Of a stretch of DNA of 64,000 nt, positions 7,183 to 50,467 are shown one piece after another. Position numbers and translations under genes: made by a program. The stretch is from Polymyxa betae (Eukaryota > Endomyxa > Phytomyxea > Plasmodiophorida > Plasmodiophoridae): NCBI GenBank assembly GCA_003693705.1, contig RBZT01000127.1, forward strand, positions 29,103 to 93,102. Reading direction: 5' to 3'. Position 1 is the stretch's first letter. Each line of letters opens with the position of its first letter. The notes beneath the pieces are model-generated. The model saw only the letters and a program-made list of their open reading frames with translations, did not search any database and had not been told where the DNA came from.

Positions 7183-8303
7183 ATGAGTAAGATAGTCTGT
7201 GGTACAAATACAGGTCTTATAAAGGGTATCATCTCTCTATTCATAAGTTATCTCCATTATATACTTATTTTCATTATTTAGTTGTTAATCTCAAATCGAA
7301 AACTGTCGAGTCAACATATGGAATCCAAGGCGTAAATCAATCCATTAGCAAACTACAAATATCTCATCAATGTCGACTAGCTATTGCAGCAAGAAAATCA
7401 GGCACTGTCACAATCACATCGCTTGAAGATGGTACATTGACGAAATCGCTGGAATTTGGGTCTCGAGATCTGGTCGGTTTATCAGTATTGCATGACAATA
7501 GAATTCTGTCCTGTGATGATATTGGCAATGTAAAGATTGCCAATATGGAATGTGATTCGATCATGACCAGCTGGAAGGTTGGTGATAGTATTCGAGGCTT
7601 CTCTTGCAATCTGGAACAATTTGCTTGTGGTGGTAAAGAGCAAGATCTCAAACTTTGGGATATATCTAATCAATCGATTATATTCCAAGGTAAGAATGTG
7701 CCTGTTGATAAATTATCTATGAGAAAGCCGATCTGTATCAATACGATCAGTATGCATAACGATAATCGCAATCTGATTGCTACTGGCACTGCCTATCATG
7801 AAATTCGTCTATATGATACACGACGAGGTCGACGTCCTGTTAATGATGTTCAAGTTAGTGATAACGCCATCACTGCCATGACAATGGGTTCATCAGGTCA
7901 ATCATACAATATATTCGCTGCTGATGCTGCTGGTATACTACAGCAATATGATCTGAGAAAGAATCTGTCGGTTGTTGGTCGATATCGAGGTCCTACTGCT
8001 TCTATCCGATCTATTCATGTACATGCTAATAATGGTCTAATGGCATCTCTTGGATTAGATCGTCACTTGTATGTTCATGATGTCTCTACTAGAACATTAT
8101 CTGCACGAATATATCTTAAACAGGCTCTCAATACTGTCTCATGGTATGATGGCATTAACACCTCCAGTACAGAACTAGACGGCCATGAAAGCAATGATGA
8201 TGATGATGATCTGTGGAATGATATGGAGAGCATAGATAATGACGATGATGATGATGACAATACGAGACTCAATAAACGGTCGAAACCAAGTGATGATGAA
8301 TAA
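7183..8303 (+). CDS. NSA1: NSA1/WDR74-type WD40 ribosome-assembly factor
   Basis: A 43-base first exon (7183-7225) and a long second exon (7282-8303) give 354 residues. The WD40 propeller shows the family's diagnostic blocks: ACGGKEQDLKLWDI, then ATGTAYHEIRLYDTRRGRRP, then MASLGLDRHLYVHDVSTRTL and YLKQALNTVSW. In yeast and animals this protein acts in nucleolar pre-60S particles, working with the AAA ATPase Rix7/NVL during maturation. The C terminus is a highly acidic Asp tail, a common nucleolar feature. The stop lies 26 bases from the convergent end of the giant GAF gene. Confidence 0.92.
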
Positions 8304-8329: not shown

Positions 8330-11300
8330 TCACTGGTTATATAGCTGATTAGATATAATATTCCTGGCCTGATTAACAGCTACACGAACACGTTCATTAC
8401 CATCAGCTGTATATTCCGATATTAGAGATTGCATAGCATTGATTAGTTGCAGATTATCACTTCGTACTAGATCAAGTTCACGTTGTAATTGTTTCATTTC
8501 AGATAGATGAACCTGATTAGTATCATCATCATCAACGGATTCGGCAATCATCATTCGGAACTGCAACTGAGCATATCTAAGATCTTTCTCCAATTGTTCG
8601 ATATGTTGTCGTGATGTCTGAATCACAGAATCTCTATCGGATAATATGGAATACATCTTTGACAATTCTGAATTCAATCGATCTCTAGTATTCTCAGCAT
8701 CCTGTAATTGAACCTGCAACGTTTGCATCTGGTTCATTTCAGTGTGCGCCAATCGTCTCGATCTATAAGTTTTTAATGGAATAATATCATCTTGGTCATT
8801 ATCATGTTGTGAATCTGCTAATGTCTGCTCTAAATGTCGGATACGTTGCTGTGCAGATATAGTTTGTGTACGTATGCGATGAAACTGTTTGCAGTTGTAT
8901 AGAGCAGTAGAGATGCGACTAGAGAGAATTTCCAGTCTGTTGATATGATCGGGAGTCCATCTTCTTCCATCAATATTATTATACTGACAGATCTATAATA
9001 TACCCAACTTCAATGACATGTAATATATTGAGACAATGTGATTCTGACCTCAACTACCCCAATAATACGCTGTTGATGGTCATAGACCGGTACAGCCATA
9101 ATTGACATTATATTGCATGATGTATACCAGGACAGATTACTGAGACCCAGATTCAGATTCTGTAACTCCACATTCGATAATATTGTATCATTCCAAGGAT
9201 TAAACAGAAGCAATGATCGACCAAGACGTTGCACTATTCCTACGACACTATTTTGTGATGGTAGACGAATACTTCCAGGTACGACTTCGAATATGCTCAA
9301 TACTACCATTAGAGAGCATATGATGTTCTTTACCTGATATTGCATCAGCCATATTACTGAATAGATCATTATGTTCACTATCATAGAGAAATAAATGTGC
9401 ACGATCAGCTACAAAGGCTTTGGCTATGAACATGTGCACAGCTTGGAACCTACACAGATGTTAGGTGTAATAACGAATATATATAGATATGGTTAATACA
9501 ATTGTGATAGCTGTACAATACCAATTATGGCACTACAGAACTGCACAATCTCATTCAACGAATGAATAGAGTCTTGATGCATTCGTATCTGATCATTGCT
9601 CAATGACAGCGCATCCCGAACTCCTCCTAATTGTTCAGCAGATTTAACTGCTTCCTGCTCCCATTTACTGCACAGCCGATTGCTCTGTATGAATAAATGA
9701 ACATAGAATCTAATTTCAAACGGCTTTGCTGTGAATACCTGCATAATTAAAGACAGGAAGGCAGCAATGGATGTGAGATAATCAGCTTCAGTAATATATG
9801 GCTGATTCTGATCACATGGTTTAATATTAACTAATTGTAATAGACCAGATACACATGCTGATGATAGATCAATAATAGGTATAATTATGGTAGATTGTAA
9901 TGTCTCTAACATCCATTGATCTGGAAATTCCGAATATCTCTCATCAACACTAACACATGGTATAATCTGTAATGAAGCTGATGATACAGCAGTACCCAGG
10001 AGACCTTGACGAGCACCAAAATGAACATCGTCATTTTGCCTGCCAGTTGCCAAGGACATGTCTGTGTAAATGAGATGGAATCTCAGATCATCAGAAAGCA
10101 GAAATAATGCAGCACCACGAAATTCGAACCGTCGATGTAGCAATGAGATGAGATCCCGGCCGATCTGAAGACAACGATCGGGTCTATCCAGACGCCATGT
10201 ACCAGCTCGTCCTAATAGCTGTAACTCCAACGATCTACATGATTCTATGCATACTGTTAAATTCACCAACATCTGTAAAAATCAATAGCTGACCTGATCT
10301 ATCATCGATATGAGCTTCACGATAATCTTCAGGAAGTTGGTGTTGTATAGAAAGGGTCATGATTACATCAGCAATAAGTTCAGCAAACTGCGATTGTTTG
10401 GGTGAGAAAGGCGATCCAGATTCATATCGAACACATCGAAGAAGACCCAGAGCAAGATCCTGATTAGGATCTTTGAGCGGTATATATAGTATAGAGGACA
10501 GATTCTCTGTCGAATACTGGCCCATTGCATCAGAATCGGGATTGTATCGTGGATCAGTGCTGATATCCACAACCATATATGACGATTTAGTAGATAGAAC
10601 CCAGGACATAATACTACCAGCACCCACGATAGTCTTCTCAGTGAACGATTTCTCATCAACTGACCACATTATTAGATAAAAGATTGGAGACGTGTGACAT
10701 TATTATGAACCTGGATATTGAAGTGAATTAGGTTGATGATGCTTAAATATAGTAACTGAATCAGCCTGCATTAATCTGCACCATGATGATTGTAACATAC
10801 ACATCTGTTCAGCAGTAATATTAAAACAAGATCCATTCAGCTTCAACACGAATGTCAATAGATCTCGCAATGCCTGCTGTCGACCTTTAAACTCATCTAT
10901 CTCGTTACTTAACTAGATTATAGAAATTAGAAGATTACCAATGTCTCATGGCCACAATCTTTACCTGATCTATTTTAGCATTGGCATTATTCAATTGATC
11001 AGTCAGATAACGAATATTAAATAGATGATTGACCAGATTGCCATAGATGCTGCCGCATAACAGCTCCAGATCATCAAATCTGGGGCTGCGACGTATGATC
11101 TGAACCAATAGATGACCGTACTGGCTCGGAATCCACATGGCCGCCATCCCCTGATGGGATCGCGATACAGCCGACATGACCATACCGCTCTGCATTGCTT
11201 GATGGGCAGATTGTGTGAGGTCATGATCAAGACCAGATGTTAGCTCATCTATAGATGTAATACGAGCCCAATCAGCCAAGATATTGAAACCATCATAGCT

Positions 11301-14300
11301 AATGGCCATGGAGGCGAATATATCACGTAGAGTAACCTCAAGCCGGGTTGTAGCTGTACTCGATATTGAGCCGCGCCAATCGTTCTGAATGGCTTTGAGA
11401 ACTTTCTGGGCATGATCTAGTTCTGTTCGAGCTCTTTTACCATTCTCTACAGCCTCATTATATTGCGATCTCAGCTGAGATTCAGATTCTTTCCATCGGT
11501 CTGCGACATGACCAGATTCCACAATTATGGTGGCAATCTGGGCCAGTATTTCCAGGCATCGTACGTGGCACTTGTTAGGAGATTGCAAGCCTGTCTTGGT
11601 TACAATTAAGATACCTGATCCCAGTGTTACTGCCGTGGAGATAAATGTTTGTGATAGAAGTGGGTATTGGCAAAGAGTTGAGTCGTTATGATGGCAATGA
11701 TCATTGGTAACTGTTGACGACACTAACAATTGTGCTAGATCATGATCCAGAATTTGAACGCCTTCCAATAATAAGGTATTGTCAGTAATAATCGGAATGT
11801 ATCGGCCTTGATTGTACTGGATCAGATTTGCAAATTTATCCATTATTGAATGGAGAGCTGTATGACCACCAGATCTCAGCTGCTGAATGGCTTCATTATG
11901 AATCCAGTTCATCACTGAGAAAAAGTCTGATAGAAATGTGTTCTCGTGACGGCATTGTTGTAATGCTTGTGTAGAGATGTTCATGGATTGTGACATTTGA
12001 TCCATATTATGACGTAGAAGTAGAGCAGATGCTGCTGATCTGGACACATAATCGCAGAACTCAATCTGTGATATATTCCATGCATTACTGCTAAATATCA
12101 ACAGCAAATAATCACTGAAAAGTCCTGAACGCAATACAAAATTTGATTGCAACTGATGGTCAACATCTTGAGCACAAATTCGAAGTAGGTCAATAGCAAC
12201 ATCAGTGGGTACAGAGACTGTTCGATTAGTTGGTGTCAGGTTCAGGATTCGCTCATCAACGTCGTTCTTTGACATCAAACGAACTTGACATGGTATGAGA
12301 AGCTCCTGGACGGTACCAAGGAATCTCTCGAATGACATAGCATTGTCAAATACATCCATAGTTAAATGAAGTAATCGCTGAAAGGAGCAGGACTTAGAAT
12401 TAGCCTGGGCCAGTGTTTCATTGGCTTCAGAAAGCTCAGCTTGTTGTGTATCAAGTTGAACTAATAATGAGGACACTTGGATCAGATACTGTATCCATAA
12501 TCCTAATATTGAACAAAATAATCGCGCTTGATCGTTATTCACAGATTGATCGGTCTCTGGTCCTACAGCAAGACATACGCCCAAAACATTATGTTCACTA
12601 TCTAGTATTGGTAAACCAATCACTGATTTCTTATCCCTAATTAATCACATCTCACACACAATCAGACACATAATATCCAATATTTCAATTACCCATCGGC
12701 AATGGTCGAGCTGGGCCAGATTGATCGCAGATCTTTGAATTGGACCCGACTTTCGGTAATGTCCTTAGACGAGCAGGTCTGCTCCAGGACTTCTGATAGA
12801 TCTGTGCAGCATGTATTACGAAATTGGTTACTTTGAGTCATATCCCGGTTACCTGAATTCAGTTCTATCATTGATGTTAAGGTTCTTAAATCAGTATATT
12901 TCAGTAATTTTTCTGTGCCAAAAACGAAGAACTGTTCCAATCCACTAAGGGATTTCCAAAATATCAGGCCGCTTTCCTCCAACATCTCACGAATATTCAT
13001 AGATAGGCCTGGGGATATCTTCCAAATCGTCTCCACAAACCTGGAAGCTAACGATGCTGCTTCACCCAATTGTAACGCTCTTTTACTGATTTTTGTCAAA
13101 CGTGACACCTGGGCTGATAACAAAACCTGCATTCGTTGACGGCTCTGACGTTCAGTCTGAGCCAGCTTAATAGCGGGTTCCAATCTATATGGATTGGGTG
13201 AGTATTGCCAAGGTTCGGTGAAATGAGTTGGTCCTCTACCGATCCTGGAGTTTCAGTGAGCTTCGATAAGATCGAACCATATCGAGTAGAATATTAGAGA
13301 CACTCTCGAGGAACTTTTGGTCGCTGCTTGAGAATCGAGATCGATTCCCTGTCTCCAGATCACATTTATTGCACACACGAATAACGCCCAATACTCCCTG
13401 GTTGATAACAGTTCAAACCTGAAATATTGTTGTGCTAATCACCATGAGCTGACCTCTTTATCGGTACCAATTGCCGACATCAGCAATGATCGTGGTTTGG
13501 GAGATGATTTCAACCCGTATGGAATTCCATCATATTCCTCATTGTATGCATCGGGTACGTCATCTTCATGATAGAAAGCCGACATCCTGTTTATACTGCC
13601 CTCAAAAAATCATCATGGTTTAGAGTTTGTCATACCTGGAAACTGCCACCTGCGTCAACAAACACACCTCATCGATTGGACATCGCACTGTCTTCAAACT
13701 TCCGGTCGTACTGGACTCCGGCCCCGATGTCCACAGGTATGTGCATGTTTGATCGAACAGCCAGAGTTGGGCACATTCCGCACCCAGAAATTTGGCCTAA
13801 CCATGTTTCGAATTAGGTTTGCAATTTCGTCAAAAGAGCGCTATTACCAAAGGACACGTATCAGGCCCGAAAACGTTATGCAATCCTTTAGACAAGGTAA
13901 CAGTTCGTGCACATTCAATTAATGAATTTGCCATCTGTAGCTGGGTCTGTAATCGTCCCAGCTCTTTACATTCATGTGTACTCTTCTGAGTTAATTCTAT
14001 TAATTTCCATTGATAAGCCATCAGCATATTGAGACGTGCAGAGACTGCTTTCATGCCCCAGAGCTCCACTCGACTAAATTCCTTCCCCTTTCCAATATAA
14101 GCGCATAACTGTCCCCTCCATCCAGCATTTTCAGCTGAATCCAGATCCTCATTTAAGGCCGGAGACATTGAGAAATCTGCACGAGAATAAGTAAGCGAAC
14201 CGGGCTATCCAACATTGTTCTGACGTGATATTGGTGAGGAATTGCTGATTGTTTCGGAATCAGGAAGCCAGCGATACCACATTTTCCCAATGCGAATCTG

Positions 14301-17300
14301 TTGATATATTTTAGTAAAATCCTGCACATCATAATGATCTGACCTGAAACATATCAGTCTGCGTAATAATAACAGACAGGGCAATGAGGGCGCCTTCCGC
14401 CACAGCTCGAACAGCGGTAGGTTCATCAACAGGGTTAATCAGATCAGTTTTAACAGCCAATGCATTCATAATGCGAATCATCTCTTCATTCTCTGCTTCA
14501 AGCTGTGCTAATTGTTCAGATGGTCCACTGGTTGACGATATATTCAGATCTTCAGAATGTTTCAGGGACGGTCTAGATCTTGGTGTAACAGGTTCACTGT
14601 TAACAACAATCTCAGACTCCATTGAAAAGATTTTCTTTCGGGTAGGTCGACGAGAACCGGCGCGACTGGACCTATGTGAAGATATTGTCGATGTGACCGA
14701 TGGCGATCGCGATGGTGATCTCATAACGGCTGCGACCGTGACCGGCTCGGTTGCAGTGGCATTCAAAGATCGTCCGGAATCCCCAGAGCCGTACGATTGC
14801 GATTCTTCAGCGATATCAGAAATGCTATCGCTGGGACCGAATATGCTCTGCAGGTTGAGATTCTTCATATCTAACGATGAGATAACACGTTCATGAAGAC
14901 GTCGGGGTCGGGGAGGTGATAGAGGCAGTTCATCTTGCACGTCAGGCACTATCTTGGGTAGAACATATTCAATCTCACCGCCCATGAACTCGATCGTATC
15001 AGCGCTATCATCGGTTTCGATAATCAATGCTGCCATCACTTCGTTCACTTCTTCGATATCGCGACCTTCACCTGAACGTGATAATCGTCGAAATGACGAC
15101 CTTTTCAGTAGCGGTGAATTGATCTCTGACTTGGCCAATGGTAACGAGACTGGTTTTGTATCCAGATTGTTGATTAAAACATGTCGAGTTGTTCGCTTAT
15201 TGTCAGCGCTCTCCGAATCGGAATTACCAGTGGCTGTTGCTTCCAATAAATTCGAGACCGATCCGGCATGAAGCAGAGCAAAGCTTTTGATTCGTGCTTC
15301 AGCCGAAGTTGAACGGGTAATGCTGGGTCCGGCATCATCTTGTTCAGTATCGCTATTAAATTCTGTCGACATCCAATCCCTCCATGCTGAGACCGGCTCT
15401 GACGATGATCCTGTTAGATCCACGTTCATACGTCCGGCGAATGATTCGATCATATTGGCATCAATCTGGTCACCGTTTGTCAACGATGACGATCGGGATA
15501 AACGAACATCGTCATCAGATAGCATAATAGTGGAATTAACCCGAACCGCAGAAGGTGGTTTATGGACTTCTTCCATGGGTATCACTGCTGTCTGATTAGA
15601 TTCAATCGGTTGCGGTTCGTCGTCAACAGGTCGATGGCGCATTGTCGCTGATGCATTAAACTGGTTGTGTTTTCGATCGAGAAACGACCCGCACATGTTG
15701 GCAAATATTGATAGAATTACAGAGAAGTGGTTGGCGAATTTTGTGGCTTCTACGCCGGCAAATACAACGGCAATAACTCTGCCCAGATTATCCAACCTAA
15801 GGTGACACCAACACGTCAATAACGGTACATCCTAACCAAATCATATAACACGATCTTACAATGGAGTGCAGGTGACTAAAAGAGGGTAGGCTACTTTAGC
15901 TACATGAACGTTATTTCGTATAGTGATACATCGGGAATCAATCGTCTGTTTAGCGAGACGTCTAAATGCAGGCGAATGTGAGATCTTATCAACTCTTTCA
16001 AGGCGATATGGTAACAAATGTCGCGGCATGACAGAAGCAATGGCAACCAGCTCAGCATCGAGCGCATCACGTAGCGCTGCTGCCACCTTTGTAGAGAAAT
16101 TACTTGGGTAAAGGTCGCCAGACTCACCATCGAACAACTTCGTAATTAGTTCGCAACCATTAACCTGGGCTTTATATCGATCACGGTCAAGAGTGATAGT
16201 AGAAAGATCCTTTTCAAATCCTTCGAATTGATCTCGTACACGACGTTCACGACGTAATGCGGTACATAGCCTTCTGCAAAATAGCTTTACCATCTCTAGA
16301 TCTGTGCTGGTAAATTGTTGTCCATCATTCTTTCCGATCAATTCCACGACTCCATAATCAATAGATTCGCCGTCTGCATTTGTATCAAATGCTGGGACAC
16401 ATAACAGTGATGAACAACGGCGATAATCGAAATCGGCTGGAACATCGATTTCTGGATCGAATTCGTGATGATTCAGCAGAGCGTCATTAAGCATAGTATG
16501 CTGTCTTCTAATCTGAACAGAGCCAACAATCCCAAATCCCAGCTTCTTTCGGTGTTCACTAGCAGCATTCGCATGGTCCCCGCTAAAACATATCAACTCT
16601 TTGCTCTCCTCAGAGATGAGCCATATTCGACAGACTTGGCATTTGAGTGCAGATTGTAATTGGGTCTGAGCCCAGGATAATACTGAAGAGTTTCGGGCTC
16701 TCTCTGATTCTATATTGCTGACAATCGTGATCATATTCAAAAGTATTTCGCAGCGTTCAGCACTGGATGCTTCTTTCTCTTTGAGGTTTAAAGAGTTTAA
16801 ACGGAGTCGTAAAACATCAGCGGCAAGTTTGGCAGAATCGATTTGAGAGGAAGTGGAAACCCCTTCCAGATAGAGAGCATTTTTTGCAGTATCGCCATTT
16901 TCAAGTATTGGGTAGCAGGCAAATGAGTCTCTCCTGATGGTTTTCTTGAGATTGGCACTTTCTTGAACAATCTCTGGACAGGTTCGTATCTTCTTTGATG
17001 ATGTATCAAGAAGAGTAGCTGCTGTGCATGGAATAGAAGAGGATATAATACTCTCTAATCCTTTTTCTGATACTTTTGGTGACCAATCGCAGAGATATTG
17101 TACCATATTAGAAAGGGACCCGATTTGCTTCTGATGTTCCTCATTTGATTGTGACATGATTTCATGACGAACGGTCAGTAATCTTTCCTCAAATGCCTTC
17201 TGCGATGAGGCAATCTGCATCTCTAGATCATTAACGCGCTCTTTCAATGTTTGACTTTGCTGGGATTCCACCTTGAGATTCAACAATGCTTCTTGTAAAT

Positions 17301-17640
17301 CTAACTTCACAATCTCATTCTCCCTTCTTATCTTAGAATTTTCGGATTTTAAGCTTTCACTTTCGGCTTGTATTTCTTTAATCTCATTGGATTTAGCAAC
17401 ATCTGTGCGATAAAGAGAGATGTCGGATCTGTTGATATTGGCGAACACAGCTTGATCAGGAATCACCGATGCTACCGACCCATTTGTAGGCGAAATAGAA
17501 ATCGGGACATCATGTAAAATTTGCTTGATATCTGCATCGGTATCTTGAGTGATCTGTTCGGCGAGCCGAGAGAACATTGTCTTCCATTTGAGATCGTCGG
17601 CCTGGTCATCTGCCGACTCTGAATCGGTCTCCATTGACAC
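8330..17640 (-). CDS. Giant tandem-GAF-domain coiled-coil protein, 16 exons, 2844 residues
   Basis: Sixteen exons join with consistent phase at every boundary: 17640-15860, 15796-14344, 14297-14225, 14176-13848, 13796-13636, 13586-13454, 13397-13240, 13184-12693, 12636-10965, 10912-10711, 10659-10294, 10253-9739, 9684-9500, 9449-9334, 9284-9049, 8992-8330. After an N-terminal coiled coil (about residues 60-200) come GAF domains near 315-465 and 505-640, a Ser-rich disordered region (about 640-1040), then further GAF or GAF-like units near 1180-1353, 1400-1574, 1610-1740, 1760-1925, 1960-2080, 2085-2265, 2290-2445 and 2500-2665, and a C-terminal coiled coil to 2844. Clear GAF strands include EGVLGVIRVCNK, LDSEHNVLGVCLAV, SGLLQLVN and QQRIIGVVEI. 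No kinase, cyclase, phosphodiesterase or HD domain is visible. GAF domains bind small ligands such as cyclic nucleotides or dimerise; function here is unknown. Several middle units are called from pattern only. Confidence 0.85.
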
Positions 17641-18664
17641 TGTTGCACAGATATATGAAGCTATGAAGTCATGAAGTCATGCTATTATCTGCTGAAGATA
17701 TAAACAAGTTATAGTTGTATCTCAGGATTCTAGCCCTATATCAATAGTTAGGTCAACTTCACCTGTTATGTAACATTAAATACATACAAGTGCAATGTAA
17801 AGCAGCAGCCCAATCTCGAATAGGAATACCGGTACGGTCTGTTCAAGTCAGCAACAATTATTGTCAATGTACTGAGCAACCAACTTCATATCTGCTATCC
17901 TCTGAACATGTTTTTACATCTGTTATTCTATCCCGGAATTAAATATTTGGTCGGAATCATATACACAGTATCTTGTCTTATCGAATTGTCGCAGTTATGC
18001 GGGAGTTGGCATTTGGGTCAGCCTCAGACAGCATGAACGACCTGAGCTAGATCGTAAAACGATTCCGGACTACAGTTGTTATGATCAAGTAAGCCATACG
18101 AATTAATGACCAACAGCAATGGTATTTCTGGTAAGAAGATGATATAGACAGACATTACATGGTATTGTTACAAGTGAAAAGTGACAGAGATGAGAGATAA
18201 ACTGGTGACTACTGACTAGGGTTTGTACTGTATTGTTACTGGTTAGATAGTACATGTGTATATAGACTAGCTATGTGTACACAACGAGTGGAACAGTACA
18301 GGAATTCAAGTGGTGAGAAACCCTAATGGCAGTCAATGTGCGTCACTGGACCAGCTCGTGACCAAGTCTAAATCATGGTCACGAGCTGGTCCAGTAGTAC
18401 AGAGGTAGACATGCACTAGTTACTATTAGCATGCCATTTCAGATATTATTCATCATCATCTCTGACATATAGACACAGATATTCATATATATTAGGGGTT
18501 GGAATCCTGATCCTCTGGCTAATACCATGTACTAATTAGTTATTGTAGTAGAGTCGGCCCCGATCTATTCATCAATATCATCATCAGATCTCACGGTACC
18601 TGATCAATATATTCAGAATTCTCATTCTGACACATCATCCATTTACTTACAAAATTAATATCAA
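17641..18664. other. Divergent intergenic region upstream of the giant GAF gene
   Basis: About 1 kb separates the starts of the GAF gene (minus) and the KOW gene (plus), so it should hold both promoters. No coding frame is convincing. The only strong structure is a perfect inverted repeat at 18345-18395, annotated separately. Confidence 0.5.
18345..18395. repeat. Perfect 20-base inverted repeat with 11-base spacer
   Basis: The arms at 18345-18364 (actggaccagctcgtgacca) and 18376-18395 are exact reverse complements, separated by agtctaaatca. It would form a 20-pair hairpin as RNA or a cruciform as DNA. It stands between two divergent genes. A microRNA-like hairpin, a transcription-factor palindrome or a relic of a mobile element are all possible; the sequence does not decide. 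Confidence 0.9.
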
Positions 18665-19258
18665 ATGGCAACTGCAGATGATAGCCTTCTACTTAACAAA
18701 TGGTTACTTCAACGTGTCTTCATACGCAAGGGCCGGTACGTCGGTCATCTGGGTCAGGTTGTTGGCTCTATCAATGGTCGTGTTCGGGTCCAGATTGGTG
18801 ATGATATAGTTAATAAGCAGGAATGTCAATTAGAGCTATATGATGCATCACTACATTCATCAATGAATGATATTATACCTGGTATTAGTAAACCTATACG
18901 TCCACCTACAAGATCATCACCAAGTCTTATTGGATCTCGAGTTCGAATATTGAATGGCAAATTTGGTGGTTATTGTGGCCTTGTTAGTAAAGGTGGTAAT
19001 GGATACTTTGCTGTACACATCGATACTGGTCTCAACAATTCTAATCCTTCATCAATTGTCATGAAACGCAGCTCTGAGCTGGTTATATTATCAAATAGTA
19101 CATGCAAGGAGCAAGGAGAGACGATTACTATGACAAGTAATAATAATGAAGATGTACACAAGGCTGCTATTATATTACTTGATTTAATGCAATCAGAGAT
19201 CGGATCAAGGAAAAGATGTCGATCACCAGATCGATTTGAGACAATTGAGGGATTTTGA
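18665..19258 (+). CDS. Two-KOW-domain protein of unknown function
   Basis: This intronless 197-residue product has two KOW-like modules: residues about 19-45 with RKGRYVGHLGQVVG, and about 87-121 with GSRVRILNGKFGGYCGLV. KOW motifs are small beta barrels that bind RNA or RNA polymerase and occur in ribosomal proteins, Spt5 and splicing factors. The spacer is Pro/Ser-rich and the C terminus ends in a short helix and a basic SRKRCRSPDR patch, suggestive of nuclear RNA work (inference). It is far shorter than Spt5 and lacks an NGN domain. I do not recognise an exact family. Confidence 0.75.
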   Translation: MATADDSLLLNKWLLQRVFIRKGRYVGHLGQVVGSINGRVRVQIGDDIVNKQECQLELYDASLHSSMNDIIPGISKPIRPPTRSSPSLIGSRVRILNGKFGGYCGLVSKGGNGYFAVHIDTGLNNSNPSSIVMKRSSELVILSNSTCKEQGETITMTSNNNEDVHKAAIILLDLMQSEIGSRKRCRSPDRFETIEGF

Positions 19259-30166: not shown

Positions 30167-30451
30167 AACTCAAGTAGCAATGATTAAAGAAATCTCAGAA
30201 ATTTCCAAATTGAAACAGATTCACGAGTTGAAATGACATCGCTGTCATCAAGTCCGCAGTTCCGCACTTTTTCCCAGAAATTTTCCAATATTTGCGCACA
30301 TATGAATGATACTGTCCTACTGTGTGATAAAAGAGAATTGCGCGCCCTTTTATCCCGATATGACCTTTGTATACTAATTTTTACATCTCATCATTAACAT
30401 ATCCTCGAGGTCTTATTAGGGCACATCGTGTCCATCATAATTCCTTAGTCT

Positions 30452-32014
30452 ATGCCCAGAGCGTCACCACCCGATAATGCTGGGGCATTTGTCAGCCGTC
30501 GTGACCGTCCCGAACACCAACAGCGTCGTGCTGGTACCGGGCGCCAGATTACCAGCCGGGATTTCGGCGTGCTCGGGCGTCACACCGGTGTTCGTTTGCA
30601 GCAGACGACGAAGGATTTGGAGGGCTTCGACGACTTAGATCAGGCATGGAATTCTGATAACGATGTTGATCAAGAGAATGCTGGCGCCGTCCAGAATCGC
30701 TCTTCGTTATTTCCTGAATCCCCTTTGTCCATGTCTACAGCCCCGAACGAGCCTGAACCCGCAATTGCTGCAAAGAAGCTGGAATTTGATGGTGACCAGA
30801 ATGAAGACCAGACTGCAGATCTTCCTGATTCACAGCCAGCCAGTGAAAGCGAACCTGAATCTGAACCTGAAGCACCAGAACCAGTTAAAACCAAACCTGT
30901 AGCTTCTCGCACCAAGCAGAATGCCAACAAATCGTCTGAGACTGTGAAGAAAGCATCCAAAAAAGGGAAGAGTAAATCTTCGCCATCCGAAGTTGCTAAG
31001 AAGCCTTCGAAAAAGAATTCGGCGAACGAAGGAGCGAAGAAGAGGAAAGAAAGGGCCTCGAATAAATCTCGTAGTAGTCCTTTGGACAAGAGATTGAGTC
31101 CTGCTAATATCAGTATAGAGAATGATGAAAATGAAGAACCAGTTCAAGACACAGTTGAAGATTCAGGCAGCTTTACTGAAGACGAGACTGTCAAGGATTC
31201 TCCTGTTGCTGAAATTCCAAAACAATCAAAGAAGGTTCAATCTAAACAGCCTAAAACCAAGAAAGCGGCTTCAACTAAAACGAAGCGCCGACAGACGTTG
31301 GTTATTATTGATGAGGCTCAACAATCTGGCCTTTTGGATGAAGAGACCATGGTTATCGAGAACGATAAACTCGTCAGACGCAGTCAAAGAGCTCGTTGTA
31401 AACCTGTCGCTTTCTTTCAATGCGAACAGCCGAATTATATTCGGGGTCCCGGCGGTCTGTTTACACTTGATCGTGAGAAAGTCGTCATCAAGCACGTTTC
31501 GACACCACCAGCTCCACCGGCTCGTCGTATTCGTCAGAAGCGGCGTCGACCTAAATCCTGGGATGAGAGCTCTGATGAAGAAGAAGAGCTGTTGCCATTG
31601 TTTGGTGAAACCAAAGTGATTGGTCCGAATGGTAAAGAGCGACGTCAGATTGTTGCTGTTCGTGCTTCGGATCATGCAATGAGTAAAATCACGACCAAAC
31701 CGCCAGCTGGAGAAAAGGCGCAGAGTAAGGATTTGATACCGACCGTTTGTAAATTTGAGGGACTTGATCGGGTTTCTACTGGAATTATACGAATTCCTGC
31801 ATCAGGACAGAAATATGCAGAGACGTCATCCAGGACAGAGGTTTTCTTTGTGGCTTCCTGCGAACGAAATTCATTGCTCGTAAAGATTAATAATAACGAA
31901 TTCAAGCTGAGCAAAGGTGATACATTTATGGTTCCAGAAAAGAACTCGTACACGATAAAGAATGTGTCTGGACGTAAACAGGCCGACTTATTCTTTTCTG
32001 CCAACAGAGATTAA
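30452..32014 (+). CDS. MIF2: Inner-kinetochore protein CENP-C / Mif2
   Basis: The 520-residue intronless product has a long disordered, Lys/Glu/Ser-rich middle, a CENP-C motif near residues 308-328 (RRSQRARCKPVAFF) and a C-terminal cupin fold (about 423-520) with EVFFVASC and SKGDTFMVPEKN strands. CENP-C binds CENP-A nucleosomes through the motif and dimerises through the cupin, linking centromeric chromatin to the outer kinetochore. The middle contains repeated Glu-Pro-rich and SKK-rich segments. The divergent start, about 285 bases from the REX4 start, suggests a shared promoter region. Confidence 0.93.
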   Translation: MPRASPPDNAGAFVSRRDRPEHQQRRAGTGRQITSRDFGVLGRHTGVRLQQTTKDLEGFDDLDQAWNSDNDVDQENAGAVQNRSSLFPESPLSMSTAPNEPEPAIAAKKLEFDGDQNEDQTADLPDSQPASESEPESEPEAPEPVKTKPVASRTKQNANKSSETVKKASKKGKSKSSPSEVAKKPSKKNSANEGAKKRKERASNKSRSSPLDKRLSPANISIENDENEEPVQDTVEDSGSFTEDETVKDSPVAEIPKQSKKVQSKQPKTKKAASTKTKRRQTLVIIDEAQQSGLLDEETMVIENDKLVRRSQRARCKPVAFFQCEQPNYIRGPGGLFTLDREKVVIKHVSTPPAPPARRIRQKRRRPKSWDESSDEEEELLPLFGETKVIGPNGKERRQIVAVRASDHAMSKITTKPPAGEKAQSKDLIPTVCKFEGLDRVSTGIIRIPASGQKYAETSSRTEVFFVASCERNSLLVKINNNEFKLSKGDTFMVPEKNSYTIKNVSGRKQADLFFSANRD

Positions 32015-45888: not shown

Positions 45889-46602
45889 TTAGATAGTCAC
45901 CTTGAGTGGAATGCTGTATTCCTTATCGCCAATCTTGGCATATATCTCTTGGACTTGGACAGATACGATTGGACCATCAGTAAGACTATCAATGAGTTGC
46001 GCGATCGCTCGGTAATGGTCACCAGCGATCCATGCAAATGTTGAATGAGCAATAGCTGGATTGTAATACACTGGTAATCCAAAGCGCTCCATGCAATGGT
46101 CGATTTTCGCAATGATAGATTCAACTTGCTCTGGATTTGATACAAGTAAAGAAAGAAATGTTCGTGTTCGCTCCTCATTGATAAAAACAGCAAACTTTTG
46201 AAGACTAACTTGAAATTGAACCATATCTCCAACAACAGATGCAACAGCAGACAGAAGAGGCTGAATCTCATGCTTTCGCAATGTGAAAGTTTTGGTAAGC
46301 GAAATATGCCTATCTTCTTCTGGCACTAAGTTGAGGTCTTGGTATTGAGCATCATGCTTAAAGACGGAACGAATATAAAGAGACGAAGGGTAATTTCCTT
46401 GAAAATGAGGAAATGATCTGACACGGGCACAATGCTTTTCCGGTCTGTCTATCCAAGGGTCTGAACCTCCATATTTGACGTGAAGTGGAATCGGCAATGT
46501 TTGTATTTTCACAGACCGATCGTCGACTTCGCCATCGGATGCATACAGGTGTTGAAACTGTTCCATTGACCTTTGTCTGCGAGCAGAACAATGCATGCGC
46601 AA
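45889..46602 (-). CDS. USB1: U6 snRNA phosphodiesterase USB1 (2H family)
   Basis: The 237-residue intronless product carries the two HxS/T motifs of the 2H phosphodiesterases, HIS at residues 99-101 in DRHISLTKTF and HST at 186-188 in IAHSTFAWIAG. The second is HxT rather than the usual HxS. FPHFQGNYPSSLYI near the N terminus also fits USB1. The enzyme trims the 3' oligo(U) tail of U6 snRNA and leaves a cyclic or 3' phosphate, protecting it from decay. Met at residue 13 is an alternative start. The upstream region is the long inverted-repeat element. Confidence 0.88.
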   Translation of the reverse strand: MRMHCSARRQRSMEQFQHLYASDGEVDDRSVKIQTLPIPLHVKYGGSDPWIDRPEKHCARVRSFPHFQGNYPSSLYIRSVFKHDAQYQDLNLVPEEDRHISLTKTFTLRKHEIQPLLSAVASVVGDMVQFQVSLQKFAVFINEERTRTFLSLLVSNPEQVESIIAKIDHCMERFGLPVYYNPAIAHSTFAWIAGDHYRAIAQLIDSLTDGPIVSVQVQEIYAKIGDKEYSIPLKVTI

Positions 46603-46682
46603 AAATTCCGGCTCCGAGAATCGAAAAAGTTACCAATATTTACATACGCATCGCATTAGAAAGGCATCCCCCAGAGTCATCT

Positions 46683-48971: not shown

Positions 48972-50467
48972 TCAAACCACATCAGTTCCGTCGAGCGAGA
49001 TGTCCGGTTTATCACCAACATCGTTATTTTTCTGTGACGAATTCTGTGCAGTCATGTCATCTTCAAACACCAAATATATCTGTTTGGCGAACGAATTTCT
49101 AAGGGCCTGGAGCCGGCAATGCACCTTTGAGAGGAACTGCTCTCGTTCATGGTCTTTGAGATCCTGCAGGGTGCGGCTCTCTAAATGATTGAAGTCAGAG
49201 TGCTGCCTCATCGTATCGTTAACGCAGCCTACCCTTCTTGGCTTCATTACGAGCATGTTCAATTTCACTCCAGATAAAGGTGATCGACTCGTCCTGTAGG
49301 TTCAGAAACTGGTCCAGCGTCTGACGCGCCTGTTGGCATTGCGATCGGACCAGCTCGCAATCGGCTTCCACTGCTCGCCTCGCCAGCTCAGCGTTATCGA
49401 GCTGCGCCTCGAGTTGACGAATGACCTGATTCTCAACGAACATGTTCTTGGCGCTGGCTCGAGCACTGGCTCGTTGACCGACTTCCAACTCACTGATTCG
49501 TTGGTCGTTGGCTTTAGACTTAGCATGTAATTTTTTGATTAATTTTTGGAAGAAGCTGGTTCGTTTTGCGAGCATGGCCTCGGTTTCTTTATGCAGTTCA
49601 AGCTCACGCTTCAATGCTAGTTTCTCTTTTTGGAGTTTCGCATTTTTCACAAGCAATCTTTCTGTTTCTTTGCTCTGATACTGTAACTCGATGGTCATCT
49701 GTTCATTCTCCATAATTGCTCGTTTCGTGGTGGTATGAAGTTGATCTATGCTACGATTATGGCTTCACCGATAATACTGTGGAAATACATTACCCTCGGT
49801 CATGGCTAGGAGACTCAATTTCGTTTCCTTAATTTTTTTGAGCATTTCTCTCTTTAAGCGTTCTTTTTCGGCAACGTTCAGCCGTTCCAGGTCGTTGACT
49901 TTTCTGACCATCTCTTTACTTTCGCTTTCGATGGTTGCCTTCAGCTGTTCCAACTCCATTTCAAGTTCTTTTTTCTGATCACTATTGCCTGCCTCAATGC
50001 AAACGCATCCAAAAATCTCCCAATGATACCTGAATTCTTTTAAGCTTTTACTTTCGCGAGTGAGCTTTTCTAAATGCTCTTGGAGTTCCTTCTTTACTGC
50101 TGCGTTCTGAGATTCCATCCGTTTCAGCTCGTCCTCCTTTTTCTCTTTCAGCTCCCGAATTTGCGCGTCCAATTTTTGATTAGTTTGCATCAAATTTACG
50201 ATCACTTTGTCTTTCTGCTCATTTTCTTTTCTGTAGAACCATATTAAATCTCCCTACGACAAGCTGAGTTTCTTGTTTTTCTGAGTGCGCCTTACTTACT
50301 TGTTTCGACTGAGATTGTTCAACCTCACTGCTAATTTCGTCAATCCTCGTTTTTAAGACTGTGTTCTCAGCATTAGCAGCGGCTATTTTATCTGTTAGTA
50401 ATTTTTCTTTGAAAACTGAGTCCATCAACTGGGCCTCCACAGATCTTCCAGTTCCTGGCTCCGACAT
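48972..50467 (-). CDS. CFAP157-like coiled-coil flagellar/basal-body protein
   Basis: Exons from 50467 to 48972 read MSEPGTGRSVEAQLMD, a long coiled coil, KERLKREMLKKIKETKLSLL, then across an intron TTTKRAIMENEQMTIEL and ETERLLVKNAKLQ, and a final exon with LQDLKDHEREQFLSK. The RLKREMLKKI ... TTKRAIMEN ... LL.KN.KL order agrees with CFAP157 proteins as I know them, which act in sperm or cilia and bind microtubules or basal-body partners. An intron near 50220-50262 can be placed in more than one way. The product is nearly all coiled coil, so homology by composition is a risk. Confidence 0.7.

What the first reader, a model, noticed from the sequence alone, without database searches (positions are those of the whole stretch)
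8330..17640. A 2844-residue protein built from about ten tandem GAF-like domains with no output domain
All 16 exons join with consistent phase, so this is one gene rather than a cluster. Known GAF proteins (phosphodiesterases, cyclases, histidine kinases, phytochromes) usually carry one or two GAF units and a catalytic output. Here at least five units look like clear GAF domains and others are plausible, with coiled coils at both ends and a 400-residue disordered spacer. It resembles a multivalent ligand sensor or scaffold. In a zoosporic organism a link to cyclic-nucleotide signalling or the flagellum is an attractive guess.
Basis: partly seen in the sequence, partly recalled or inferred. Interest (0 to 1): 0.78.

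Follow-up and report, generated by a model that had tools for sequence, protein, structure and literature searches.

The report
Giant fungal multi-GAF protein without enzyme
A flagellated fungus carries one very large gene for a protein that strings several sensor-type (GAF) domains between coiled coils and has no recognisable enzyme part, so it looks more like a scaffold or adaptor than an ordinary signalling enzyme, though its function is untested.

Summary
The called frame is best of six in 15 of 16 exons; 14 of 15 introns must be spliced to keep the frame open. Of 12 candidate segments, 7 are supported by a GAF profile built from other proteins (0 of 500 and 0 of 60 shuffles as good): A, C, H, I, J well, B and D weakly and over part of the domain. 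N0, C0, E, F, G are not established, so 'about ten' is unproven. Pfam shows no output domain. The NKFDE motif of cyclic-nucleotide-binding GAFs is complete in 0 of 7 units; C has four of five residues, A three. Best reading: a long, probably dimeric, mostly structural GAF scaffold with one or two possible ligand sites. The flagellum link is untested, though the genome holds radial-spoke, cyclase and phosphodiesterase genes. Eight- and seven-GAF proteins exist in bacteria. Three protein searches found no relative; eukaryotes may be scarce in that collection.

The parts
8330..17634 (-). whole gene, 16 exons, 2842-aa protein
17119..17409 (-). N-terminal coiled-coil-like stretch, residues about 76-172
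   Evidence: home-made heptad/helix score, uncalibrated
16765..17124 (-). segment N0 (171-290), not established as GAF
   Evidence: 77 of 500 shuffles as good; 1 of 60 by hhalign, probability 1.7
16234..16689 (-). GAF unit A (316-467), clear
   Evidence: Pfam GAF 33.3 bits over cut-off 22.4; 0 of 500 shuffles; hhalign probability 95.4
15637..16077 (-). GAF unit B (about 520-645), weak; profile match only over residues 589-628
   Evidence: 0 of 500 shuffles; 0 of 60, probability 22.2; no GAF hit but weak PAS_4 (E 0.028) in Pfam
14452..15624 (-). polar spacer (about 650-1040): S+T 22%, hydrophobic 26%
   Evidence: composition; open frame of exon 2
13953..14454 (-). segment C0 (1040-1175), not established as GAF
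   Evidence: 92 of 500 shuffles; 36 of 60
13293..13853 (-). GAF unit C (1209-1343), clear by profile; reads NKFDQ at the NKFDE columns
   Evidence: Pfam GAF_2 16.9 bits, under its cut-off of 28.6
12441..13084 (-). GAF unit D (about 1395-1590), weak; profile match only over residues 1524-1553
   Evidence: 0 of 500 shuffles; probability 45.2, 0 of 60; no Pfam hit alone
11916..12383 (-). segment E (1610-1765), not established as GAF
   Evidence: 391 of 500 shuffles; 16 of 60
11406..11858 (-). segment F (1785-1935), not established; 3 of 500 shuffles only with a profile that includes this protein's own units
   Evidence: external profile 132 of 500; 50 of 60 by hhalign; AlphaFold pLDDT 37.6
10904..11348 (-). 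segment G (1955-2085), not established as GAF
   Evidence: 297 of 500 shuffles; 34 of 60
10316..10804 (-). GAF unit H (2119-2264), clear
   Evidence: Pfam GAF 34.7 bits; 0 of 500; probability 96.5
9652..10158 (-). GAF unit I (2304-2454), clear by profile; nearest internal relative of H (phmmer E 2.6e-5)
   Evidence: 0 of 500; probability 86.0; no Pfam hit alone
8864..9510 (-). GAF unit J (2502-2665), clear
   Evidence: Pfam GAF 39.8 bits; 0 of 500; probability 97.1
8393..8890 (-). C-terminal coiled-coil-like stretch, residues about 2657-2822
   Evidence: home-made score

Best explanation
One nuclear gene of a flagellated fungus encodes an elongated bead-on-string protein: an N-terminal coiled coil, GAF units A and B, a roughly 400-residue polar spacer, then a second array holding at least GAF units C, D, H, I and J with helical linkers, then a C-terminal coiled coil. 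Shown: the open gene model and its frame, seven GAF-related units (two of them weak), no recognised output domain, incomplete NKFDE motifs. Inferred: the protein is soluble, dimerises through its coiled coils and GAFs, most units are structural or protein-binding, and at most C (and perhaps A) binds a small ligand such as a cyclic nucleotide; it would act as a scaffold or adaptor that changes shape on binding and recruits a separate effector.
For: Gene model and coding frame. Full-length Pfam GAF E 4.4e-32, nothing catalytic listed. Seven units beat all shuffles with a profile from 23 GAFs outside this protein. Residues at the NKFDE columns: A GKFDL, B GVFFS, C NKFDQ, D GP (three columns unaligned), H RYFQS, I NIY-A, J QYWHI; complete in 5 of 23 references: PDE5 GAF-A and GAF-B, CyaB2 GAF-B, one Nostoc GAF and one GAF of the same genome's kinase locus. 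The motif is said to distinguish cyclic-nucleotide-binding GAFs, and alanine changes at each of its residues abolished cGMP binding by PDE2 GAF-B (PMC11977230, passages seen). Helical-linker peaks with score 1.2 or more at about 1389, 1578, 1726, 1913 and 2071 space the middle at 148-189 residues, room for one domain each (the spacing was not tested against a null).
Against: No expression data, no orthologue, no usable structure model. The motif test is imperfect: the alignments of unit D and of the CyaB2 GAF-A fragment stopped before its last three columns, and GAFs that bind other ligands need no NKFDE. There is no linker peak of 1.1 or more between H and I. Solubility is not shown: the best 19-residue hydropathy means are 1.83 (residue 2394, inside unit I), 1.69 (1052, segment C0) and 1.65 (1566, unit D), slightly above the 1.6 often used for membrane helices (recalled). 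A divergent output domain could hide in E-G or N0, which match nothing.
Confidence: 0.5

Rival explanations
1. A multivalent cyclic-nucleotide sensor: several GAF units bind cGMP or cAMP and pass the signal to a partner such as a kinase, phosphodiesterase or flagellar part.
For: Among the 23 references the best phmmer matches of A, C, H and J are CyaB2 GAF-B, PDE5 GAF-B, PDE5 GAF-A and a Nostoc GAF, followed by this genome's own kinase-locus GAFs; unit C has 4 of 5 NKFDE residues; the genome has Guanylate_cyc and PDEase_I matches.
Against: 0 of 7 units have the complete motif; B, H and I have 1 of 5, J 0 of 5, D 0 of the 2 columns aligned. No Bac_rhodopsin match was found in the genome, but that family rang in no control genome either, so it shows nothing.
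Confidence: 0.25
2. A structural protein of the flagellum, basal body or another cytoskeletal assembly in which GAF folds serve as inert building blocks.
For: Coiled-coil-like stretches at both ends, degenerate motifs, Radial_spoke_3 matches in the genome.
Against: No localisation or co-occurrence data; the window ORFs that gave a Pfam name are of housekeeping type (several gave none). Searches for GAF domain with axonem or radial spoke listed 3 and 1 papers, none about such a protein by title and start of abstract.
Confidence: 0.2
3. Two adjacent genes wrongly joined at exons 2-3-4: exons 1-2 (units A, B and spacer) and exons 4-16 (units C-J).
For: The join runs through the 73-bp exon 3, the only exon whose called frame is not the best of six (rank 3); an ATG lies early in exon 4.
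Against: Introns 2 and 3 have GT-AG ends and lengths of 46 and 48 bp, within the range of the other introns, and the two open frames lie only about 125 bp apart (14329 and 14204).
Confidence: 0.15
4. The catalytic output is present but too divergent to recognise, in the E-G region or N0.
For: Residues about 1600-2100 and 165-300 match no Pfam family above its cut-off.
Against: Spacing of helical linkers would suit single GAF-sized domains (no null test); no Pfam family of any kind reached E 0.01 in N0, E, F or G.
Confidence: 0.1

Closest known systems
GAF-containing cyclic-nucleotide phosphodiesterases and CyaB2 adenylate cyclase (PDE5, PDE10, CyaB2)
   Same: GAF fold; units A, C, H, J have best matches to this branch or to a Nostoc GAF among the 23 references; PDB hits of the whole protein are 1ykd CyaB2 (E 1.6e-4), 4mcw (2.7e-4), PDE5 (0.0028), PDE10A (0.016)
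   Different: No catalytic domain found here, at least seven GAF units instead of two, NKFDE incomplete in each of the seven
GAF protein kinase locus of the same genome (G000 C359, locus L008)
   Same: Several GAFs in tandem in the same fungus: three in one ORF, one in the next
   Different: Has a kinase domain and one GAF with the full NKFDE motif; not assembled into a gene model here
Bradyrhizobium WP_304501497.1, eight-GAF histidine kinase
   Same: Long GAF array (8 stretches)
   Different: Has HisKA and HATPase_c; its GAFs score far higher (426 bits against 112)
PtxD (NpF2164) of Nostoc punctiforme, seven GAF domains
   Same: Seven GAFs in one protein (PMC5812497, passage seen)
   Different: At least six bind a bilin and it is a phototaxis photoreceptor of a bacterium (same passage)

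Membership tests
GAF domain (PF01590 and relatives) | profile score over the curated cut-off | tested here: met
   whole protein 111.8 bits against 22.4; alone, units A, H, J pass and C, B, D, I do not, though these four beat all shuffles with an own profile
Cyclic-nucleotide-binding GAF (PDE/CyaB2 class) | complete NKFDE motif | tested here: not met
   0 of 7 supported units; best C with 4 of 5; D aligned at 2 of 5 columns only
Cyclic-nucleotide-binding GAF (PDE/CyaB2 class) | binding of cGMP or cAMP | not testable with these tools
   needs purified protein
GAF-regulated enzyme (PDE, cyclase, histidine kinase, protein kinase) | catalytic output domain | tested here: not met
   no such Pfam family among the 6 listed for the full-length protein at E up to 10 (HMMER's filters drop most weak matches)
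Phytochrome or cyanobacteriochrome | chromophore cysteine followed by histidine in the GAF (recalled) | tested here: not met
   the pair CH occurs twice, at 1839 and 1881, both in unsupported segment F, in none of the seven supported units; other chromophore sites not tested
Flagellar protein | present only in flagellated relatives, or located in the flagellum | not testable with these tools
   The genome search holds no other eukaryote and no relatives of G000; searches found no relative

The most novel reading that the evidence does not exclude
A eukaryotic protein class made of up to twelve GAF folds and coiled coils with no enzyme, in which GAF domains have become building blocks of a giant dimeric scaffold, keeping one central cyclic-nucleotide-responsive unit (C) that switches the assembly, possibly at the zoospore flagellum.
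Probability: 0.15. Interest if true: 0.65.

Novelty: new variant of a known kind. Interest (0 to 1): 0.38.

Why it matters
GAF domains are usually read as regulators attached to an enzyme. A large array without one would show that the fold can be reused as a scaffold, and would give a concrete candidate for cyclic-nucleotide or flagellar signalling in zoosporic fungi. If orthologues turn out to be common and annotated, it is only an unusual family member.

Tried and rejected
An automatic gene model (17 introns, 2713 aa) was rejected by eye: several of its introns cut through GAF-like sequence that reads through in an open frame; the curated model replaces it. Because I chose splice sites with the GAF pattern in mind, the two are not fully independent, but 14 of 15 introns are forced by the frame and the frame test uses other genes. 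Three protein searches of the 5.8-billion collection gave no hit: full length (the 7980 candidates sharing most words scored, E up to 0.001), residues 2285-2660 (3970 candidates, E up to 0.001) and exon 9 (the 7991 sharing most words, E up to 10). This may only mean that eukaryotic gene models are scarce there. Viral-contig scans with exon 9 and exon 1 gave no relative. A scan of bacterial genomes was made with the C359 GAF ORF, not with this protein, to gather GAF sequences; it gave none. AlphaFold on exon 9 and on segment F was too poor for a fold search, so none was run. Rfam: no match in the window at gathering threshold. Paper searches: GAF domain with chytrid (4 papers), Batrachochytrium (2), axonem (3), radial spoke (1); multiple GAF domains (4); NKFDE with GAF (6); tandem GAF domains with flagell (0); GAF domain-containing protein with zoospore (0); counted GAF domains from six to ten or GAF domain repeats (2). 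By titles and starts of abstracts none is about such a eukaryotic protein. Only the passages were read; the other papers were seen as listings.

Full report
The gene. Reading the minus strand from 17634 to 8330 gives 16 exons and 15 GT-AG introns of 40-63 bp and a 2842-residue protein with no internal stop. With codon usage trained on 11 other ORF stretches of the window, the called frame is the best of the six in 15 of 16 exons; the exception is the 73-bp exon 3, rank 3. Retaining any single intron breaks the frame for 14 of 15; intron 12 (9738-9685) could be retained and would add 18 residues. Exons 1 and 9, the two of 16 that were searched, match nowhere else in the 24.4-Mb genome. The weakest point of the model is the exon 2-3-4 join; a two-gene reading is kept as a rival.

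How many GAF units. Pfam on the full protein gives GAF at E 4.4e-32 (111.8 bits, four stretches), GAF_2 and GAF_3, and no other family above its cut-off. Cut into segments, units A, H and J pass the GAF cut-off alone; C is seen only by GAF_2 under its cut-off; B, D, E, F, G, N0, C0 and I give no GAF match. I then built a profile from 23 GAF sequences, none from this protein: four fragments of PDE5 and CyaB2, five from other genes of the same genome and fourteen from plasmid-borne bacterial proteins. Against 500 shuffles of each segment A, B, C, D, H, I and J exceeded every shuffle; as good or better were 77 of 500 for N0, 92 for C0, 391 for E, 132 for F and 297 for G. With the protein's own five clear units added to the profile (each left out when it was itself scored), the seven again had 0 of 500, F had 3, N0 87, C0 195, E 400 and G 142. 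hhalign with the external alignment gave the same seven with 0 of 60 shuffles (probabilities A 95.4, B 22.2, C 95.0, D 45.2, H 96.5, I 86.0, J 97.1); N0 had 1 of 60, E 16, G 34, C0 36, F 50. The control segments, both coiled-coil ends and two pieces of the spacer, were in the noise. B and D match only over a short C-terminal part of the profile (589-628 and 1524-1553), so they are the weaker two. Seven units are supported, five of them well.

The middle. Helix-rich linker peaks of my own uncalibrated score (1.2 or more) lie near residues 1389, 1578, 1726, 1913 and 2071. The intervals of 148-189 residues would each hold one domain of GAF size, which is why E, F and G remain plausible, but the spacing was not tested against a null and no such peak separates H from I. 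AlphaFold without an alignment gave mean pLDDT 35.9 for exon 9 and 37.6 for segment F; these models carry no weight.

Ligand binding. The NKFDE motif is said to distinguish cyclic-nucleotide-binding GAFs, and changing each of its residues abolished cGMP binding in PDE2 GAF-B (PMC11977230, passages seen). At these columns the seven units read A GKFDL, B GVFFS, C NKFDQ, D GP with three columns unaligned, H RYFQS, I NIY-A, J QYWHI: 0 of 7 complete. Of the 23 reference GAFs 5 are complete: PDE5 A and B, CyaB2 B, one GAF of the C359 kinase locus and one Nostoc GAF. The CyaB2 A fragment read NK only because its typed piece stopped early. Unit C is therefore the best candidate for a nucleotide site, A the next. 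By phmmer against the references the best matches are CyaB2 B for A, PDE5 B for C, PDE5 A for H, a C462 GAF of the same genome for I and the Nostoc GAF for J; H and I are each other's nearest internal relative (E 2.6e-5).

Surroundings and genome. The gene lies tail to tail with a WD40-type ORF (7191-8303, plus) and head to head with an ORF that has KOW-like matches just under the Pfam cut-offs (18659-19258, plus). Its genome has Radial_spoke_3 matches on three contigs, Guanylate_cyc matches on five, PDEase_I matches on seven and chitin-synthase-family matches (a family that also rings in 4 of 14 bacterial and archaeal controls). Other GAF matches of the genome are the kinase locus at C359, C462, C238 beside PDEase_I, and a weak one under the cut-off at C503, also beside PDEase_I.

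Mechanism. Most likely a long scaffold: coiled-coil-like ends suggest a dimer, and the degenerate units suggest structural or protein-binding roles. One or two units may still bind a ligand and alter the shape. Solubility is assumed; three stretches reach 19-residue hydropathy means of 1.65-1.83, two of them inside GAF units I and D, the third at 1052 in segment C0, so a membrane contact is not excluded. All of this beyond the domain content is inference.

Novelty. Arrays of this size are known in bacteria: eight GAF stretches plus histidine kinase in WP_304501497.1 and seven GAFs in PtxD (PMC5812497, passage seen). What differs is the eukaryotic host, the lack of a recognised output domain and the decay of the units. 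I found no relative, yet I could not search fungal proteomes, so whether this is a known but unstudied chytrid family stays open.

Noticed in passing
L008 (G000 C359:12000-20500), minus strand: A protein kinase domain (PK_Tyr_Ser-Thr) with one GAF in its ORF and three more in the neighbouring ORF, one with the full NKFDE motif: a candidate cyclic-nucleotide-regulated kinase of this fungus.
   Followed up: partly
G000 C449, C249, C206: Radial_spoke_3 matches on three contigs, so this flagellar gene family may have several copies.
   Followed up: no
G000 C238 and C503: GAF-like and PDEase_I matches side by side, probably GAF-containing phosphodiesterases (the C503 GAF match is under the cut-off and holds stops, perhaps introns).
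   Followed up: partly
window 30449-32014, plus: CENP-C/Mif2-like kinetochore protein (Pfam CENP-C_C, 51.1 bits over 29).
   Followed up: no
window 45889-46629, minus: HVSL family protein (E 3.6e-33), the family of the U6 snRNA phosphodiesterase Usb1 (recalled).
   Followed up: no
window 49219-49764, minus: ORF of coiled-coil look with only weak hits, under the cut-offs, to the GAS microtubule-binding and SAS-6 models; not identified.
   Followed up: no
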